From positions 1 through 34,886 of the forward strand of contig JAIXWJ010000005.1 of assembly GCA_027491335.1 (NCBI GenBank): 34,886 nucleotides of DNA, in the 5' to 3' direction. Positions 25,541 to 34,886 of this stretch are shown here, in pieces. The position numbers and the translations under genes are program-made. The notes beneath the pieces are model-generated. The model did no database searches, had not been told where the DNA came from, and saw nothing but the letters and a program-made list of their open reading frames with translations. This DNA is from Actinomycetes bacterium (lineage in GTDB: Bacteria; Actinomycetota; Acidimicrobiia; Acidimicrobiales; Ilumatobacteraceae). The stretch's first letter is position 1; every line of letters starts with the position of its first letter.

Positions 25541-27811
25541 ATGGGAACGCACGCTGAGACTCCGGCCGCACCTTCGGGTTCGCGGCGCCTGAAGCCCTAC
25601 CAACTCTCGATCGCCATCGGTTCTTTCATGGCGGTGTTCATCATGGTGTCGGGCGTGTTGCCCCTCATCACCGGGTGGAAGAGCGACTCCCCCATCCACC
25701 GCGAAGTGTTCGGTGGAATCCCCGGCCCGCTGAAGCTGGCCTTCTACACGGTCATCCCGGTCTTCGTGCTGTGGGGATCGTTGCGTTTCGCCGATCGCAT
25801 CCGCAACTGGGAGCGCGGCGCACCCGATCGTCGTCGCACCACCGCGAAAAACGCGAAGCGCCGCCTGGCCGACTTCCGCGCCGGCGTGTACATGCGCACG
25901 CTGTTGCGCGATTCGGCGGCCGGCCTCATGCACTCGCTGATCTACTTCGGCTTCCTCATCCTGCTCGGCGTCACCACGGCCCTCGAACTCGATCACCAGT
26001 TGCCCGAAAGTCTGAAGTTCCTTCACGGTGACGTGTACCGCGGCTACGTGTTCGTGGGCGACTTCGCCGGACTGATGTTCACCGGTGGAGTCATCTGGGC
26101 CATCGTGCGTCGTTACGTGCAGCGCCCGTATCGCATCCGCATCAAGTCGAAGCCCGAGCACGCCGTCATCCTCGTCACTCTTCTCGCGATCGGCCTCACC
26201 GGTTTCGGCGCCGAGATGTTCCGCATCGCCGAGTCGACCGCCAGTGGCACGAACATGGATCACGAGAAGTGGTCGTTCGTCGGCTACCCGCTGGCCCAGA
26301 CCGTCGATGGTCTCGCTCCGCGCACGTTGGAGTTGTGGCACCAGGGTTGGTGGATCGCGCACGTTCTGACGTTCGTGGTGTTCCTGGCCATCCTGCCCAT
26401 CACGATGTTGCGCCACATCTTCACGTCGCCGCTGAACATGTACCTGAAGGACCGCGATCGTCCCAAGGGTGCGATGAAGGCCATGCCGAATCTCACCGAG
26501 ACGTCGCTCGAGTCGTTCGGCGCCGCGGTGGTGGAGGACTTCACGTGGAAGCAGTTGCTCGACACCGATGCCTGCACCATGTGTGGTCGTTGCACCAGCG
26601 TGTGTCCGGCTCACGCCACGGGCAAGCCGCTCGATCCGCGCGAGATCGTTCTGAAGACCGGCGAAGTGATGGCGGCCACCGCCGCTCACGCTCCCGGTGG
26701 CAAGGTGTCGCCTCCGTTGGGCACCGATCCCGAGATCACCATCGGCGCGAACTCGCTGTTCGAGCGCATCACCGCCGAGGAAGTCTGGAGCTGCACCTCG
26801 TGCAAGGCCTGTGACGAGATCTGCCCCGTGAACATCGAGATCCTCGACAAGATCCTCGACATGCGTCGCTATCTCTCGCTGATGGAGAGCAACTTCCCCG
26901 CCGAGTTGGGCAACGCCTACCGCTCGATGGAGAACCAGGGCAACCCGTGGGGTATGAACCAGGGCGAGCGCGCCGACTGGGCCAAGGATCTCCCCGTCGA
27001 CATCGTCGACCCGGGCGACGCGTTCTCGTACGAGTACCTCTACTGGGTCGGTTGCGCCGGTTCGTTCGACGACAAGAACAAGAAGGTCACCCAGTCGATG
27101 GCCAAGCTGTTGAAGCGAGCCGGCATCGACGTGGCGATCCTCGGACCCAGCGAGATGTGCACCGGTGACTCGGCCCGTCGTTCAGGCAACGAGTACTTGT
27201 TCCAGATGCTCGCCATCCCCAACGTCGACATGCTGAACGGCATGGGCGTGAAGAAGATCATCACGCAGTGCCCGCACTGCTTCAACACGCTGGCCAACGA
27301 GTACCCGCAGTTGGGTGGTCGCTACGAAGTGATCCACCACACGCAGTTGCTCGAGCAGCTCATCGACAGCGGACAGCTGGACGTGAGCAACGCGTCGCTC
27401 GAGGAGCGCATCACCTACCACGACTCCTGCTACCTCGGTCGTCACAACGACGTGTACCTCGCACCCCGCAAGGTGGTGGCGTCCATCAAGGGCATCGAGG
27501 TCGTGGAGATGCAGCGCAACGGCACCAAGGGAATGTGCTGCGGCGCCGGTGGCGCGCGCATGTGGATGGAGGAGTCCATCGGCACCAAGGTGAACGACGA
27601 ACGCGCTCGCGAGGCTCTGAGCACCGGAGCCAGCCGCGTGGCCACCGCGTGTCCGTTCTGCTACATCATGTTGGACGACGGCGTGAAGGCCGCGGGAGCC
27701 GAGGAAGATCAGGTGAAGGTGGCCGACATCGCCATCCACCTGTTGGAAGCCATCGAGAACGGCGAGAAGGCTCTGGCCAACCCCGCCGCTCCGCTCACCA
27801 CCTCCAACTGA
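25541..27811 (+). CDS. etfD: ETF:menaquinone oxidoreductase-type membrane Fe-S protein (EtfD/EMO)
   Basis: Takes electrons from electron-transfer flavoprotein during acyl-CoA oxidation and passes them to menaquinone. The 756-residue protein begins with a NarI-like cytochrome-b/membrane part (helices at about 21-45, 65-82, 128-148, 170-190, 207-222, 272-292). Two [4Fe-4S] ferredoxin motifs follow, Cys345/348/351/355 and Cys418/421/424/428. The C-terminal HdrD-like half has CCG-type cysteines (C505, C540, C577/C580, C630, C666/C667, C704/C707). The architecture matches mycobacterial EtfD (Rv0338c) and Syntrophomonas EMO. The ETF genes are not in the window. The gene is monocistronic, between two hairpins. 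Confidence 0.87.
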   Translation: MGTHAETPAAPSGSRRLKPYQLSIAIGSFMAVFIMVSGVLPLITGWKSDSPIHREVFGGIPGPLKLAFYTVIPVFVLWGSLRFADRIRNWERGAPDRRRTTAKNAKRRLADFRAGVYMRTLLRDSAAGLMHSLIYFGFLILLGVTTALELDHQLPESLKFLHGDVYRGYVFVGDFAGLMFTGGVIWAIVRRYVQRPYRIRIKSKPEHAVILVTLLAIGLTGFGAEMFRIAESTASGTNMDHEKWSFVGYPLAQTVDGLAPRTLELWHQGWWIAHVLTFVVFLAILPITMLRHIFTSPLNMYLKDRDRPKGAMKAMPNLTETSLESFGAAVVEDFTWKQLLDTDACTMCGRCTSVCPAHATGKPLDPREIVLKTGEVMAATAAHAPGGKVSPPLGTDPEITIGANSLFERITAEEVWSCTSCKACDEICPVNIEILDKILDMRRYLSLMESNFPAELGNAYRSMENQGNPWGMNQGERADWAKDLPVDIVDPGDAFSYEYLYWVGCAGSFDDKNKKVTQSMAKLLKRAGIDVAILGPSEMCTGDSARRSGNEYLFQMLAIPNVDMLNGMGVKKIITQCPHCFNTLANEYPQLGGRYEVIHHTQLLEQLIDSGQLDVSNASLEERITYHDSCYLGRHNDVYLAPRKVVASIKGIEVVEMQRNGTKGMCCGAGGARMWMEESIGTKVNDERAREALSTGASRVATACPFCYIMLDDGVKAAGAEEDQVKVADIAIHLLEAIENGEKALANPAAPLTTSN

Positions 27812-30451: not shown

Positions 30452-31021
30452 TCAGTTCTTGTCGAAGTTCTCGAAGTATCGGCTCGGGGTGGGTCCGCGC
30501 TGACCGTGATACTTCGAACCACGGGCACCTTGTCCGTAGGGATTGTCGGCCGGGGTGGTCATCTGCATGAAGCTGACCTGGCCGATCTTCATGCCGGGAT
30601 ACAACGTGATGGGCAGACTGGCGACGTTCGCCAACTCGAGGGTGACGTGTCCGTCGAAACCCGCGTCGATGAAGCCGGCGGTGGAGTGAATGAGCAGACC
30701 GAGTCGGCCGAGAGAACTCTTGCCTTCGATGCGCGCCACCAGATCGTTGGGCACTCCCACGCGCTCGAGGGTGCTTCCCAGAACGAACTCACCGGGATGC
30801 AACATGAACACGCCGTCCTCGGGGATCTCGACCAACTCGGTGAGACCGGTCATGTCCTTCTTCACGTCGATCACGCCGGCGGTGTGGTTGCGGAAAACCC
30901 GGAACAGATGATGCAGACGCACGTCGATGGACGAGGGCTGGATCATCGCCTCGTCGAGCGGGTCGATGATGATGCGGCCGGCCGCGAGGGCCTCCCGCAG
31001 GCTGCGGTCGGACAGAATCAC
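30452..31021 (-). CDS. dcd: dCTP deaminase
   Basis: Deaminates dCTP to dUTP in pyrimidine deoxynucleotide synthesis; the actinobacterial form is often bifunctional, giving dUMP directly. The 189-residue protein has [44 protein letters not shown] and [17 protein letters not shown], the conserved trimer active site. The GTG at 31021 gives the standard VILSDR beginning and is preceded by TACGGT at 7 nt; the GTG at 31030 overlaps that box and is less likely. The long open frame further upstream is the antisense of the tRNA gene. Confidence 0.95.
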
Positions 31022-31028
31022 GACCCTC

Positions 31029-31034
31029 ACCGTA
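31029..31034 (-). promoter_or_regulatory. -10 box of dcd, leaderless type
   Basis: TACGGT on the minus strand, 7 nt before the GTG at 31021. It decides between the two adjacent GTG codons. Confidence 0.5.
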
Positions 31035-31099
31035 GTGGGTTCGGGGCCTCCGCCAGCAGGTGACGGCTCGCCCGACCCCCGATAATCTCGGGGCTGTCT

Positions 31100-31173
31100 G
31101 CGGGTGTAGTTCAATGGCAGAACATCAGCTTCCCAAGCTGAGAACGCGGGTTCGATTCCCGTCACCCGCTCCA
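31100..31173 (+). tRNA. tRNA-Gly (anticodon CCC)
   Basis: A complete cloverleaf: acceptor GCGGGTG/CACCCGC, D-arm GTTC...GAAC, anticodon stem TCAGC/GCTGA with loop TTCCCAA (anticodon CCC), 4-nt variable loop GAAC, T-arm GCGGG-TTCGATT-CCCGT, discriminator T and encoded CCA. It reads GGG codons. Base composition drops sharply right after its 3' end, so it is a likely integration site for the following segment. Confidence 0.95.
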
Positions 31174-31549
31174 CGGCGAATGGGCTTTGTTCCGCATGAC
31201 CAGTTCGATTGCCTCGTTGTTGGGTGTCGTCCCCAGGGTGCAAGGTCTGGGTAACAGATCAAACTCAGGGAGGATTCTGGGGGAGACTTGCGAAATCGAC
31301 GAGTGGACTCGTAGATAGCTTCATGCCAACGTCGCGGACGCACCAAGAACTTCGACCAAACTCGCACGGCGAAAACCTCGATGACTGGCTTCTGAGAATG
31401 TCCGCGGTTCAGCCCCATAGTGCTGGGGGCTCTCAGCACAGCCCTCACCTCGTCTGAGACGGTTCACACGAAACTCGAATGAATGACTGCTCATCTCGGT
31501 TCAGGAGCACTTTCTTGGAGAACTGCCCTTCCACATCAGAGCGACGTAG
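31174..31549. other. Gap between tRNA-Gly and the island genes, no convincing gene
   Basis: 376 nt without a supportable gene; open frames here are remnants or extensions of tRNA shadows. The segment contains overlapping hairpins: AGCCCC/GGGGCT (31411-31416 with 31426-31431) and GTGCTG/CAGCAC (31420-31425 with 31434-31439), about 110 nt after the end of the PLD gene. It probably holds the attachment junction of the island and the 3' end of its transcript. Confidence 0.5.
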
Positions 31550-33007
31550 TTAAACGTCTTCTCGCTGAGACTTGATCACTCCTTCAATACGAGCACACAA
31601 GTCGATGTATTTAGCGTCAACGATCCTGCTTTTTCGGATAACAGTGCTCTCTTCGTGACGGTACTCCTTAAACCGACTTCCTTGAAAGCTCAGCCAGTTG
31701 AAACTTCCCGAAATATGGACATCATCAAAAAGGAGTTGTTTCGAGTGGGTATTTCCCAGATTAGCCAACGTGAAATTCGAGAAACGATCCGCCATCTTCT
31801 TTAGTTTCTCTTCGGCCTTTTCATCTTCAAACGAAACTTTTCGATCGCCCGGCCGTTGATTTAGTCCGTACCCAATGTGCACTCGAACTCCTCGTTGGAG
31901 CAGCTGCCGAAGTTGCTCAAGGAATCCTTTGTTAACAACCTGTGCCGAAATCCAAGGAGAAAAAATCACCAATCGTTCTTTGGTCTCCGTAAGCGCACGC
32001 CGGAGATACGGTTGGTGTTCATAGGTGTCTATGAATTCAACCTGACTCGTACGCAGTCCAGTTGTCGTGTCAGTTACTGGTGAAATCACCTCGGGGCCCA
32101 TCGACTCTTGAGCTTCGAAAGTTGCGGCAATTCGAGCGAGTCTTTCCTGCTCACGTTGCTCCCGCGATGGTGCCTCAGCAACTAGGACCTGCGCGACTTG
32201 TTCGGAGTAATCCTCTTTCAACTTACTCATCGGCGGAGGAGCCGGCTTTCCAACTCCAATATCTAGGAACCCCAACCCTCCGAGCTGCAAAAGGGCGGTT
32301 TCATGTTCCTCCGATGGCCGCCCGTCGATTATCACTGCAAGTTGGGGGTCGCCCCCATCAAGGGATTCGAAAATTGCCAATTCTGCAGGAAGGAACATCC
32401 TGCTTCTGCGGTCGATTGAAGCAACAGCGAGCAGGAGTGGCTTTGCGCTCTTTGAGCGCAGCCCCTGGACCTCTCGATCGATTGAGTCAAGAGCCAGATC
32501 CGAATCTCGAACCTTCTGCTTCTTCTTTGGCTTCAACTCCAATCGGCCTTGCTCCTCCAACTCAATAGGCTTCAACAAATTGCCCTGAGCCGTAGCTGTA
32601 ATGTTCCAAAGCAATCGATCGAAACCGATTCGTACCTGCTCTCGCGATGGCGATTCTCGGTAAAACGACTCAAGGACAGCTGATCCATGTGTTGTCAGAC
32701 TCATTTCCCGGTATCCGTTAACGACAACTTGTTTAACCAAATCCTCTTTCTGAAGATCAACGAGCATTGAGGTAACGAGCTCTGAACTCACCCCTAGGAT
32801 TCCGGAGATTTCATTGACAGAAGTGAATCCTTCGCTAATCGCCTTCATCACAAATTCCTCAAGGGGACCAAGGGGCTTCCGGTCGATGATAAGAACCGTT
32901 GCCCTCAGAAGGAAAACTGGTATACCGCACTCAACAACTTCCAGAAGTCGATAACCGGGTCTGCTGACACTCAACCGCTCGAGAAACGACTCACGATCGA
33001 ACCTCAC
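31550..33007 (-). CDS. Winged-helix / phospholipase-D-like nuclease (Mokosh MkoB-like)
   Basis: A 485-residue protein. Residues about 60-112 look like a winged helix-turn-helix (SVNEISGILGVSSELVTSML...LTTHGSAVLE). A middle region with charged, Lys-rich stretches (157-168) follows. The C-terminal PLD-like domain (about 320-460) has VIFSPWIS and a single HKD motif HSKQLLFDD (His421, Lys423, Asp428) with GSFNWLS after it. A single HKD implies action as a dimer, as in Nuc/BfiI-type nucleases. The GTG start overlaps the helicase stop (GTGA), so the two are co-translated. Lower G+C and A/T-richer codons than the neighbours indicate transfer. A PLD partner of a COG1112-type helicase suggests the Mokosh defence system. 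Confidence 0.75.
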   Translation of the reverse strand: MRFDRESFLERLSVSRPGYRLLEVVECGIPVFLLRATVLIIDRKPLGPLEEFVMKAISEGFTSVNEISGILGVSSELVTSMLVDLQKEDLVKQVVVNGYREMSLTTHGSAVLESFYRESPSREQVRIGFDRLLWNITATAQGNLLKPIELEEQGRLELKPKKKQKVRDSDLALDSIDREVQGLRSKSAKPLLLAVASIDRRSRMFLPAELAIFESLDGGDPQLAVIIDGRPSEEHETALLQLGGLGFLDIGVGKPAPPPMSKLKEDYSEQVAQVLVAEAPSREQREQERLARIAATFEAQESMGPEVISPVTDTTTGLRTSQVEFIDTYEHQPYLRRALTETKERLVIFSPWISAQVVNKGFLEQLRQLLQRGVRVHIGYGLNQRPGDRKVSFEDEKAEEKLKKMADRFSNFTLANLGNTHSKQLLFDDVHISGSFNWLSFQGSRFKEYRHEESTVIRKSRIVDAKYIDLCARIEGVIKSQREDV

Positions 33008-34886
33008 TGTTCAACCTCCAAGTGAGCGCACGAATCTCTATGCCCACCCACATATTGAGCAACTTCGCGAAAAGGTGTCTCCGTTGCCCGACAAAATGCC
33101 ATGTCGCCGACTATGGCGAGACCCTTCTTCGCTCTCGACAAAGCGACGTTTGCTCGAGCATCAAGTTTCAGAAATCCAGCTTGTCCTTTTGGATTTGACC
33201 TAGTGACACTGAAGATCACGTAGTCCGCTTCTCGTCCTTGAACTGAGTCAACCGTCGCTACTTCGACCGAAACAGATTGAAGTTCGCCAATCTGATCCAC
33301 TTGCCGTCTCAACTCGCGAACCTGAGCCGAATATGGCGCAGCCACAAGCACTCTTGGGTGTTCATCTGAGTTCTGGAAATGAAGATCCAACTTTCGAACA
33401 AGTCTTGCTACGTGACGAGCCTCCAAGTTGTTAACAAAACTTGTTTCATGATTTGCCGAAGCACGTTCCCAGCGACTTTCAAGATTTGAGGTGTCGTGCC
33501 ATGTCACAGGTCGCGGGAAAACCTCTGGTACCGCAGGAGTCGAGGTCGCTCCTACCGAGACCAGCTCGCCGTCATAAAAGCATTCACTAATCAGATCCCC
33601 GATTGGCTTGACCATTCGGTGCTGCTCCCTGAGCAGTCTCTGATTCTCAGGAGGAAGACCTCGGGCCAGCCGACTGAACAAGGTCGTCTGCAGCTCTACC
33701 GAATCCAGTCCGTGCTCATTAATGATCTCCTCGTCGCGGAGAGCGTCTTCAACCATCGCCGGAAGCTGTCGCTCATCGCCGACAAGAACCCACTTCTTTG
33801 AGCGTGTCATGGGTACGAGAGTTTCAGTTGCAGTTGCTTTCGAGCACTCGTCGATGATGCAGAGATCGAACAAATGCTCAGAAAGTTCCCTAACAGCTGC
33901 TAGTCCCACACATGTGGCCCCGAGGACAGCCGAATCCTGAGCCAATGCGCTGATGAATCCCTCACCTCGACTAAGCCTCTGAAGCCAGTTCACTTGCAAT
34001 TGAACAAGGTTACGTAACTCCTGTGCGATTTCGCTTTTTCCTAGTATTGAGTCAGCGAGTTGATTGAGATGTAGATAGTTCTTGGAATCGATGTCTCCCT
34101 GATACTTTCTGGTCAATCCTGACTGGGTTCTTGCGAGCTGCTTCAGCAATTCAACAAGCTCCTGGATTTGATCCCGAAGGTCGCTCTTAGACTCCTCCAA
34201 CTCTTCGTTTGTGAGCTTCTCCTTCGAGAGTTGTTCAGCGCCTTGAAGACACGACTCAACTTCTCCGAGTTCCGACTCCAATCGCTTCAAACCCTCAAGA
34301 AGACCGGATACCTCACGCAGAAAACGGGACTCCGTCACGAGCCCCAATGAGACACCCCTGCCTTCTACCCAGGCTTCGATGAAAGCATTGCTTTTCGCTT
34401 CGGCCTCCTCCCTCCACCGCTTCAGTTGACCCTCAACTCGGAATCGTTCGGCTTCCGGCGCCACCTTTCCGAACTTCGGATCTGCGAGACGAATAATCCG
34501 TATGGGATTTGCGTCAGGCTGAGCTCTTTCGATCTGATCCAGCGCATTGTCAAGTGCGATATTCGTCTGAGACGAAATCAAGATTCGGGAATCTGGCTTG
34601 ATCTTTAGTTGCTGTGATACCAGCTCGGCAATGAAGGTCGTCTTTCCTGTCCCGGGAGGACCTTGTACGAGGAACAAGTCCTTGGAGCCGAGCGCTGACA
34701 TCACAGCTTCTTTTTTGCTTTGATCCAGATTCTCCCTGGTCCAGTCAGAGATGTTCACAGGCTCGGGTTTCTGACAAGTCTCAGGATTAAACAGCAGGTC
34801 ACCTAACTTCGGCTCAGCCGATTTAGCTGGTGCATGGGCGAGAATGTCTACTGCCATCTTCTCTCGCTGTATTTTTGCTTTGGACG
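33004..34886 (-). CDS. Upf1/DNA2-like superfamily 1 helicase (Mokosh MkoA-like), 5' end outside the window
   Basis: An ATP-dependent helicase of the Upf1/DNA2 (COG1112) type. Numbering from the in-frame ATG at 34857, motifs are: I GPPGTGKT (66-73), Ia SSQTNIALDNAL (95-106), II DECSK (336-340), III GDERQLP (360-366), IV LREQHRM (409-415), V DSVQGREADYV (537-547) and VI NVALSRAKKGLAIVGD (570-585). A long coiled-coil insertion (about 140-290) lies between motifs Ia and II. The frame stays open from that ATG to the window edge (SKAKIQREK), so the true start and any N-terminal domain are probably beyond 34886. In Mokosh type I the helicase carries an N-terminal Ser/Thr kinase; none is visible in what is present. 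It overlaps the PLD gene by 4 nt. Confidence 0.85.
   Translation of the reverse strand, partial: SKAKIQREKMAVDILAHAPAKSAEPKLGDLLFNPETCQKPEPVNISDWTRENLDQSKKEAVMSALGSKDLFLVQGPPGTGKTTFIAELVSQQLKIKPDSRILISSQTNIALDNALDQIERAQPDANPIRIIRLADPKFGKVAPEAERFRVEGQLKRWREEAEAKSNAFIEAWVEGRGVSLGLVTESRFLREVSGLLEGLKRLESELGEVESCLQGAEQLSKEKLTNEELEESKSDLRDQIQELVELLKQLARTQSGLTRKYQGDIDSKNYLHLNQLADSILGKSEIAQELRNLVQLQVNWLQRLSRGEGFISALAQDSAVLGATCVGLAAVRELSEHLFDLCIIDECSKATATETLVPMTRSKKWVLVGDERQLPAMVEDALRDEEIINEHGLDSVELQTTLFSRLARGLPPENQRLLREQHRMVKPIGDLISECFYDGELVSVGATSTPAVPEVFPRPVTWHDTSNLESRWERASANHETSFVNNLEARHVARLVRKLDLHFQNSDEHPRVLVAAPYSAQVRELRRQVDQIGELQSVSVEVATVDSVQGREADYVIFSVTRSNPKGQAGFLKLDARANVALSRAKKGLAIVGDMAFCRATETPFREVAQYVGGHRDSCAHLEVEQ

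What the first reader, a model, noticed from the sequence alone, without database searches (positions are those of the whole stretch)
31550..34886. Helicase plus winged-helix PLD nuclease pair resembling the Mokosh anti-phage system
Two overlapping genes encode a COG1112-type SF1 helicase and a single-HKD PLD nuclease. In established defence-system knowledge, an RNA-helicase-like COG1112 protein with a PLD protein defines Mokosh. Here the PLD protein also has an N-terminal winged-helix domain and a Lys-rich middle region, which may make it a variant. Placement next to a tRNA in foreign-looking DNA fits a defence island.
Basis: partly seen in the sequence, partly recalled or inferred. Interest (0 to 1): 0.72.

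Follow-up and report, generated by a model that had tools for sequence, protein, structure and literature searches.

The report
Type I Mokosh phage-defence genes in tRNA island
Two neighbouring genes at the end of this contig look like a copy of a known bacterial anti-phage system called Mokosh (type I), carried on a small foreign DNA island inserted at a glycine tRNA gene; it is a well-placed but ordinary member of a known family.

Summary
PADLOC names them MkoB (E 3.9e-66) and MkoA (E 1.4e-147). The helicase gene is cut by the contig end: only MkoA profile positions 570-1106 of 1112 are present. The winged helix is not a variant: the MkoB model covers it, and all 46 aligned sequences (window + 45 relatives) match that model. 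Of 80 homologous mkoB loci, 78 have the helicase within 1.5 kb upstream and 72 a kinase-helicase fusion. The missing kinase half very probably ends another contig of the same genome, C35. C35 also carries a perfect 50-bp copy of the 3' part of the window's tRNA-Gly; three same-genus relatives have the uninterrupted kynureninase-tRNA-dcd order. So this is a type I Mokosh locus on a roughly 6-kb tRNA-Gly island; no integrase was seen, but about 1 kb is unsequenced. New member of a known kind; anti-phage function is inferred, not tested.

The parts
31550..33007 (-). mkoB: wHTH + middle domain + single-HKD PLD nuclease, 485 aa, GTG start
   Evidence: PADLOC MkoB E 3.9e-66; AlphaFold pLDDT 89.4
33004..34886 (-). 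mkoA, C-terminal helicase half; open to the contig end, N-terminal half missing
   Evidence: PADLOC MkoA 1.4e-147, profile 570-1106/1112; AAA_11/AAA_12
31697..31747 (-). HKD motif of MkoB, residues 421-437
   Evidence: H421, K423, D428, S435, N437 invariant in 46 sequences; coordinates computed by hand
32657..32866 (-). winged-helix part of MkoB (about residues 48-117)
   Evidence: model secondary structure; Foldseek TrmBL2; covered by the MkoB profile
34636..34662 (-). Walker A of MkoA (GPPGTGKTT)
   Evidence: GPPGTGKT invariant in 9 and in 27 sequences; coordinates computed by hand
33841..33852 (-). Walker B/DExx of MkoA (DECS)
   Evidence: D345, E346, S348 invariant in 9 sequences; coordinates computed by hand
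31100..31173 (+). tRNA-Gly(ccc), integration target; intact copy
   Evidence: ARAGORN
31129..31178 (.). 50-bp repeat (45 bp of the tRNA 3' part + 5 bp); identical copy at contig C35:8230-8279, direct in the order C35(+) to window(-)
31179..34886 (.). low-GC island as far as this contig goes; continues on C35:8280-9670 after a gap of about 1 kb
30452..31036 (-). dcd (dCTP deaminase), chromosomal neighbour on the core side of the site
   Evidence: NCBIfam TIGR02274 219.6 bits, cut-off 92.8; synteny in relatives

Best explanation
It is a type I Mokosh anti-phage locus. MkoA is (by inference across an assembly gap) a Ser/Thr kinase fused to an Upf1-like helicase; MkoB is a winged-helix protein with a NucT/Zucchini-like single-HKD nuclease domain. 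The pair is the only coding content seen on a foreign, low-GC island of about 6.1 kb that entered the chromosome by site-specific recombination in the 3' part of tRNA-Gly(ccc), on the stretch between kynureninase and dcd. Shown: domain content, conserved catalytic residues, overlapping genes, pair conservation, the 50-bp repeat and the uninterrupted site in relatives. Inferred: the C35 kinase is the missing half of this MkoA; the helicase moves on phage RNA or single strands, the kinase switches the complex on or off, and the PLD domain cuts nucleic acid, more likely RNA than DNA.
For: PADLOC MkoA 491.9 bits and MkoB 222.6 bits; the next helicase-part match in this genome scores 28.9 bits with the MkoA model. 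46 of 46 MkoB sequences (window + 45 relatives) match the MkoB model. 78 of 80 loci have mkoA beside mkoB, 72 of 80 with the kinase in the same ORF. The same relative, L065, is the closest to both halves: 43.7% to the window's helicase half, highest of 34 MkoA rows compared, and the best BLAST match of the C35 kinase fragment. L065 MkoA matches the whole MkoA model, 6-1108 of 1112. Foldseek of the L065 MkoA model: Setx/Ighmbp2/Upf1 and PknB; of the window MkoB model: NucT and Zucchini. GC3 of mkoA 0.51, mkoB 0.50, kinase fragment 0.47, against 0.79-0.87 in four neighbouring genes. 50-bp direct repeat and uninterrupted sites.
Against: The two MkoA halves are not joined by sequence; 327-340 residues present in 8 homologues are missing. 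With the PADLOC MkoA model two other kinases of this genome score higher (138.9 and 131.1 bits) than the truncated C35 fragment (97.3 bits); with my own MkoA-kinase profile the fragment leads (160.7 against 144.3 and 125.2). The fragment joins L065 in the tree with only 88/90 support and on a long branch. MkoB identity to the 80 loci returned is at most 34%, so shared function is extrapolated. One review table (PMC10952713) lists a NERD domain for type I Mokosh; none was found in the window proteins, the C35 fragment or five full-length relatives. The listings showed no phage test of this clade. RNA as the target is not shown by anything here.
Confidence: 0.87

Rival explanations
1. Mokosh proteins are present, but the helicase is a shorter, kinase-free MkoA; the C35 kinase belongs to another gene of the same island.
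For: No sequence spans the gap; the open frame has an ATG at 34857; 6 of 80 loci have a helicase ORF without a kinase match in it.
Against: The helicase frame stays open past that ATG to the contig end. The kinase fragment aligns from MkoA residue 1 and points towards the gap, has the same GC3, shares its nearest relative with the helicase half, and the two contigs are neighbours by synteny. At least three of the six exceptions are contig-edge or frame-split cases: L080, L095, L102.
Confidence: 0.07
2. Mokosh here senses or cuts DNA (for example damaged or replicating phage DNA, as proposed for Hachiman) rather than RNA.
For: Dna2 is among the fold matches of MkoA; the winged helix resembles the DNA-binding TrmBL2.
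Against: The top helicase matches are RNA helicases (Setx, Ighmbp2, Upf1); Zucchini is also matched by MkoB; a Mycobacterium MkoB is annotated with an S1 RNA-binding domain. None of this is decisive.
Confidence: 0.3
3. The locus is a decaying remnant without function.
For: No integrase was seen and the contig breaks inside mkoA.
Against: The sequenced frames are open; HKD and Walker A/B motifs and the HRD and DFG motifs of the kinase fragment (sequence) are intact.
Confidence: 0.06
4. A housekeeping Upf1-like helicase beside an unrelated PLD gene.
For: The MkoA model also rings in 13 of 14 control genomes at E up to 1e-3.
Against: Score gap 491.6 against 28.9 bits for helicase-part matches in the own genome; MkoB in only 4 of 395 genomes of the class at E 1e-20; pair conservation.
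Confidence: 0.01

Closest known systems
Mokosh type I (MkoA + MkoB; PADLOC PDLC03920, PDLC03922)
   Same: Separate helicase and PLD genes, overlapping; kinase-helicase MkoA in the relatives; wHTH-PLD MkoB
   Different: The kinase half lies on another contig; at most 34% identity to the MkoBs returned by the scan
Mokosh type II (MkoC)
   Same: Helicase and PLD domains match the two parts of MkoC
   Different: Two genes here, one fused gene there
NucT and Zucchini/MitoPLD single-HKD nucleases
   Same: PLD fold, Foldseek E about 1e-6 and 1e-5, a match of that domain only (query TM about 0.22)
   Different: The matched chains are short (158-198 residues), without room for the winged helix and middle domain
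Upf1/Ighmbp2/Sen1 SF1 helicases
   Same: Helicase core
   Different: No kinase (recall); cellular RNA functions
CIME-type elements / additive flexible genomic islands at tRNA genes
   Same: tRNA 3'-end repeats at both ends, cargo, no integrase seen
   Different: Origin by decay of an ICE or IME cannot be shown; about 1 kb is unsequenced

Membership tests
Mokosh type I | COG1112/Upf1-like SF1 helicase gene (MkoA) | tested here: met
   PADLOC E 1.4e-147, AAA_11/AAA_12, Upf1-type matches
Mokosh type I | PLD nuclease in a separate gene (MkoB) | tested here: met
   PADLOC E 3.9e-66; HKD invariant in 46
Mokosh type I | Ser/Thr kinase domain (as stated in PMC11672841, passage seen) | tested here: inconclusive
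   Kinase fragment at the facing contig end, C35:9093-9670 (Pkinase 89.2 bits), fits MkoA residue 1 onward; the junction is not sequenced
Mokosh type I | NERD domain (listed for type I in a table of PMC10952713; not named in the passage of PMC11672841) | tested here: inconclusive
   Not found in the window half, the C35 fragment or five full-length relatives; the middle of MkoA is missing. The kinase-type MkoA model PDLC03920 fits L065 end to end, so I do not treat NERD as defining
Mokosh type I | Genes kept together across genomes | tested here: met
   78 of 80 loci; 8 of 8 plasmid loci opened, of 49 records matched
Mokosh type I | Protection against phages | not testable with these tools
   needs an experiment
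Mokosh type II | Helicase and PLD in one protein | tested here: not met
   Two ORFs with a stop between them
DISARM (DrmC PLD) | DrmC best match plus DISARM partners | tested here: not met
   DrmC only 22.6 bits over the PLD part; no further long ORF on the island part of the window was taken as a gene
CIME (integrase-less att-flanked element) | attL and attR kept | tested here: met
   50/50-bp direct repeat flanking the insert, given that C35 and C45 adjoin
CIME (integrase-less att-flanked element) | Integration and transfer genes lost | tested here: inconclusive
   No match in the limited tests of the flanks; the own genome has two PF00589 matches, both elsewhere and Xer-like; about 1 kb of the island is missing; transfer genes not searched
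CIME (integrase-less att-flanked element) | Derived from an ICE or IME | not testable with these tools
   no parent element found

The most novel reading that the evidence does not exclude
The tRNA-Gly(ccc)/dcd junction is a recurrent landing pad in this group where compact defence cassettes without their own integrase are swapped, moved by integrases that other elements supply. The Mokosh island here would be a two-gene, non-autonomous defence cassette. A GmrSD-RAMA plus methylase island with no integrase match on its contig (G043 C13, 5.8 kb) and an integrase-bearing 5.4-kb island (G039 C54) occupy the same kind of site in other families of the order.
Probability: 0.2. Interest if true: 0.5.

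Novelty: new member of a known kind. Interest (0 to 1): 0.28.

Why it matters
It adds a kinase-helicase/PLD Mokosh system to a group where it is rare (MkoB in 4 of 395 genomes of the class, this one included) and shows a clean case of how such a system can arrive: a small island at a tRNA gene, with relatives that keep the uninterrupted site. The alignments show that kinase, helicase, winged helix and HKD nuclease are mostly kept together, which makes the role of the kinase, and of the PP2C phosphatase found next to it in some alphaproteobacteria, directly testable.

Tried and rejected
Variant Mokosh because of the winged helix: rejected, the MkoB model covers residues 24-406 and all 46 aligned sequences match it. 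Lys-rich middle region as a special feature: I see only a local KPKKKQK stretch in the sequence, in a region mostly modelled with good confidence.

Phage or provirus origin: the viral-contig scan gave no relative (90 pattern matches, none confirmed); the phage collection gave one weak match over 26% of MkoB, the PLD part.

Integrase remnants in the island flanks: 8 short ORFs against PHROGs gave nothing; six-frame comparison with the one G039 integrase gave nothing. Shared integrase arm sites between the G000, G039 and G043 islands: local alignment scores of 300-base ends did not exceed the best of 100 shuffles in any of six pairs, so movement by the same integrase is not supported by sequence.

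tRNA-linked Mokosh islands elsewhere: in 80 loci, 8 tRNA genes were found in 5 loci, none with its 3' 25 bases repeated (up to 2 changes) in the same locus; ORFs similar to the G039 integrase were matched in 10 of 80 loci. These loci carry flanks of at most 7 kb.

Kinase tree: three rows that I had labelled 'other' (L112, L095, L102) are MkoA pieces that my filter missed, so the group counts of that tree mean nothing; I use only the placing of the C35 fragment.

VIA-align structural comparison was not available. The A4 alignment uses 45 of the 70 loci that passed my length and start filter, out of 80; A5 uses 26 of them.

Full report
Observation. The two ORFs exist at the stated place. mkoB, window:31550-33007(-), encodes 485 aa. 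The helicase frame, 33004-34886(-), stays open to the end of the window, and the window is one complete contig of 34886 bases, so the gene is cut. The genes overlap by four bases, GTGA, with GGAGG upstream. tRNA-Gly(ccc) is at 31100-31173. GC is 0.639 before it and 0.511 beyond it.

Identity. PADLOC: MkoB 222.6 bits (E 3.9e-66) and MkoA 491.9 bits (E 1.4e-147), the latter over profile positions 570-1106 of 1112. Pfam: AAA_11 and AAA_12 for the helicase; PLDc_2 at 26.7 bits, just under its cut-off of 27, for MkoB. The nearest solved helicases by sequence are Nam7/Upf1 and SMUBP-2. The MkoA model also matches in 13 of 14 control genomes at E up to 1e-3; in the own genome the next match to its helicase part reaches only 28.9 bits, while four places, the C35 fragment among them, match its kinase part.

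The winged helix is ordinary. The MkoB model covers residues 24-406. Alignment A4 holds the window and 45 relatives; all 46 match the MkoB model. The AlphaFold model of MkoB has mean pLDDT 89.4 and pTM 0.77. Foldseek matches parts of it to TrmBL2 (winged helix), NucT, vaccinia F13, FAM83, phospholipases and Zucchini; query TM-scores in the rows shown are 0.20-0.25, so these are domain matches, and the TrmBL2 superposition has a high rmsd. H421, K423, D428, S435 and N437 are invariant in A4.

Co-occurrence. The genome scan with a MkoB profile confirmed 150 relatives and returned the best 80. In 78 of 80 a helicase ORF lies upstream on the same strand within 1.5 kb (open frames overlapping in 69, within 300 bases in 8, further in 1), and in 72 of 80 the kinase is in the same ORF. 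The two without a helicase (L082, L083) have the mkoB frame 35 and 49 bases from the locus start, which is a contig start; of the six others at least L080, L095 and L102 are contig-edge or frame-split cases. The profile was built from plasmid loci that already had mkoA beside mkoB, so the sample leans towards the pair. In the plasmid collection 49 records matched; I opened 8, and all 8 have a gene annotated as kinase or AAA-domain protein directly upstream. PMC11672841 (passages seen) states that type I Mokosh has separate helicase and PLD genes with an added STK domain. PMC10925250 (passages) puts MkoA in the Upf1 subfamily. A table in PMC10952713 (passage) lists a NERD domain for type I; I found none in the window proteins, the C35 fragment or five full-length relatives. 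The founding paper (10.1016/j.chom.2022.09.017) is not held; I know it by recall only.

The missing half. In the own genome the MkoA model also matches a kinase at C35:9102-9665, five bases from the end of a 9670-base contig. It scores 97.3 bits there, less than two longer kinases elsewhere in the genome (138.9 and 131.1); with a profile of MkoA kinases it leads (160.7 against 144.3 and 125.2). Pfam calls it Pkinase, 89.2 bits. It begins at MkoA residue 1 in the alignment; eight homologues have 327-340 residues between its end and the start of the window's part. Its sequence carries the VAIK lysine, HRD and DFG motifs (motif names by recall). Its best BLAST match among the kinases compared is MkoA of L065, 40%, an Acidimicrobiia MAG by its record title. 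The window's helicase half is also closest to L065 MkoA: 43.7%, highest of 34 rows in two alignments, the next being 39.1%. The tree joins the fragment to L065 with 88/90 support on a long branch. GC3: fragment 0.47, mkoA 0.51, mkoB 0.50, against 0.83, 0.87, 0.80 and 0.79 in dcd, the window gene 25541-27811, kynureninase and the metallophosphatase. The L065 MkoA model (pLDDT 85.1) matches Setx/Ighmbp2/Upf1 and PknB, and L065 MkoA fits the PADLOC model end to end.

The island. C35:8230-8279 is identical over 50 bases to window 31129-31178: 45 bases of the tRNA 3' part plus five. It is direct in the order C35(+), gap, window(-). GC drops at this point on C35 as well. dcd (TIGR02274) was matched in 55 of 61 genomes, the own one included, at E up to 1e-3; I examined the 30 loci returned. 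ARAGORN found tRNA-Gly(ccc) in 14 of 30, the own one included. In six same-genus loci the homologue of the C35:5929-7083 gene (kynureninase by KYNU_C and TIGR01814, the latter at 221.5 bits under its cut-off of 246.4), tRNA-Gly and dcd lie together: L036, L038, L048 with 17, 12 and 27 bases between the kynureninase match and the tRNA match; L047, L050, L051 with about 270, 640 and 1160 bases. In seven others (L040-L043, L045, L046, L052) kynureninase and dcd are close but no tRNA was found between them. So C35 and the window contig are neighbours by synteny and the low-GC stretch is an insert. The metallophosphatase gene C35:7120-8112 (Metallophos) lies between kynureninase and the repeat in this genome; it is absent from the three uninterrupted sites, has host-like GC3, and how it came there is not explained. 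Among G000 to G023 (one genus), only G000 has two copies of the 44-base pattern with up to 3 changes.

No integrase was seen. The limited tests of the flanks found no match. The own genome has two tyrosine recombinase matches, on C28 and C19: the first passes the XerD model (330.1 bits, cut-off 329.6), the second is best with XerC (292.2 bits, under its cut-off of 335.15). The genome is 94.57% complete. Sequenced island length is 1391 + 3708 bases; with about 1 kb for the missing codons it is near 6.1 kb. That gap is not seen, and its size rests on the one-gene reading.

The same kind of site elsewhere. G039 C54 has two copies of the repeat 5.4 kb apart near dcd, with a tyrosine integrase between. 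G043 C13 has copies 5.8 kb apart near dcd, enclosing a GmrSD-RAMA protein, an Eco57I-type methylase and an NA37 protein; none of the 30 PF00589 matches of G043 is on C13. The ends of the three islands show no similarity above shuffles.

Rarity. MkoB at E 1e-20 or better was found in 4 of 395 genomes sampled from the class, G000 included. The match in G269 (same order) agrees in position with L065, which makes the window's genome a member of Acidimicrobiia by inference.

How it most likely works. Shown: fold families, intact catalytic motifs, fixed pairing. Inferred: MkoA scans RNA or single-stranded nucleic acid; its kinase domain gates the complex, perhaps by phosphorylating MkoA or MkoB; MkoB dimerises to form a full HKD site (usual for single-HKD nucleases, recall) and cuts nucleic acid. 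RNA is favoured because the closest helicases act on RNA; PMC11291487 (passages) says Mokosh degrades viral transcripts, but I read no experiment. I put RNA at about two in three.

Known kind and novelty. PMC5704250 (passage) defines CIMEs as elements that lost integration and transfer genes but keep attL and attR. PMC5217437 (passages) describes a CRISPR island at a Met-tRNA with a duplicated 3' end; PMC10872708 (passages) describes an additive island marked by repeats of a tRNA 3' end; PMC11389934 (passages) reviews elements that need helpers. A defence system in a tRNA island is therefore a known situation, and Mokosh type I is a known system. The searches run listed no paper on a Mokosh pair alone in such an island; I saw listings, and passages of eight papers only, so this is weak evidence of absence.

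Noticed in passing
L033 9421-10146; L088 8413-9144; L100 8341-9054; L115 8375-9073: A PP2C phosphatase gene overlaps mkoB in an Aminobacter plasmid, and similar ORFs lie at or just after the end of mkoB in 3 of 80 genome loci; it may oppose the MkoA kinase.
   Followed up: partly
L033 7965-9428: The MkoB of the Aminobacter plasmid lacks the HKD histidine and the SFNW stretch in the alignment, so its nuclease may be inactive.
   Followed up: no
L014 11950-13716: The MkoB homologue of a Mycobacterium gallinarum plasmid is annotated with an S1 RNA-binding domain and has a long C-terminal extension.
   Followed up: no
L178 259-6081 (G043 C13): A 5.8-kb insert between two copies of the tRNA-Gly repeat near dcd carries GmrSD-RAMA, an Eco57I-type methylase and NA37, with no integrase match on that contig.
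   Followed up: partly
L177 2110-7508 (G039 C54): A 5.4-kb insert at the same kind of site carries a tyrosine integrase.
   Followed up: partly
L015 7120-8112 (own contig C35): A metallophosphatase gene with host-like GC3 sits between kynureninase and the repeat in this genome, but not in the three relatives with the uninterrupted site.
   Followed up: partly
L074 3228-3301; L120 264-337; L140 8683-8756: Three Mokosh loci in other bacteria have a tRNA-Lys(ttt) gene within about 300 bases of the mkoAB frames, without a repeated tRNA end in the stretch held.
   Followed up: no
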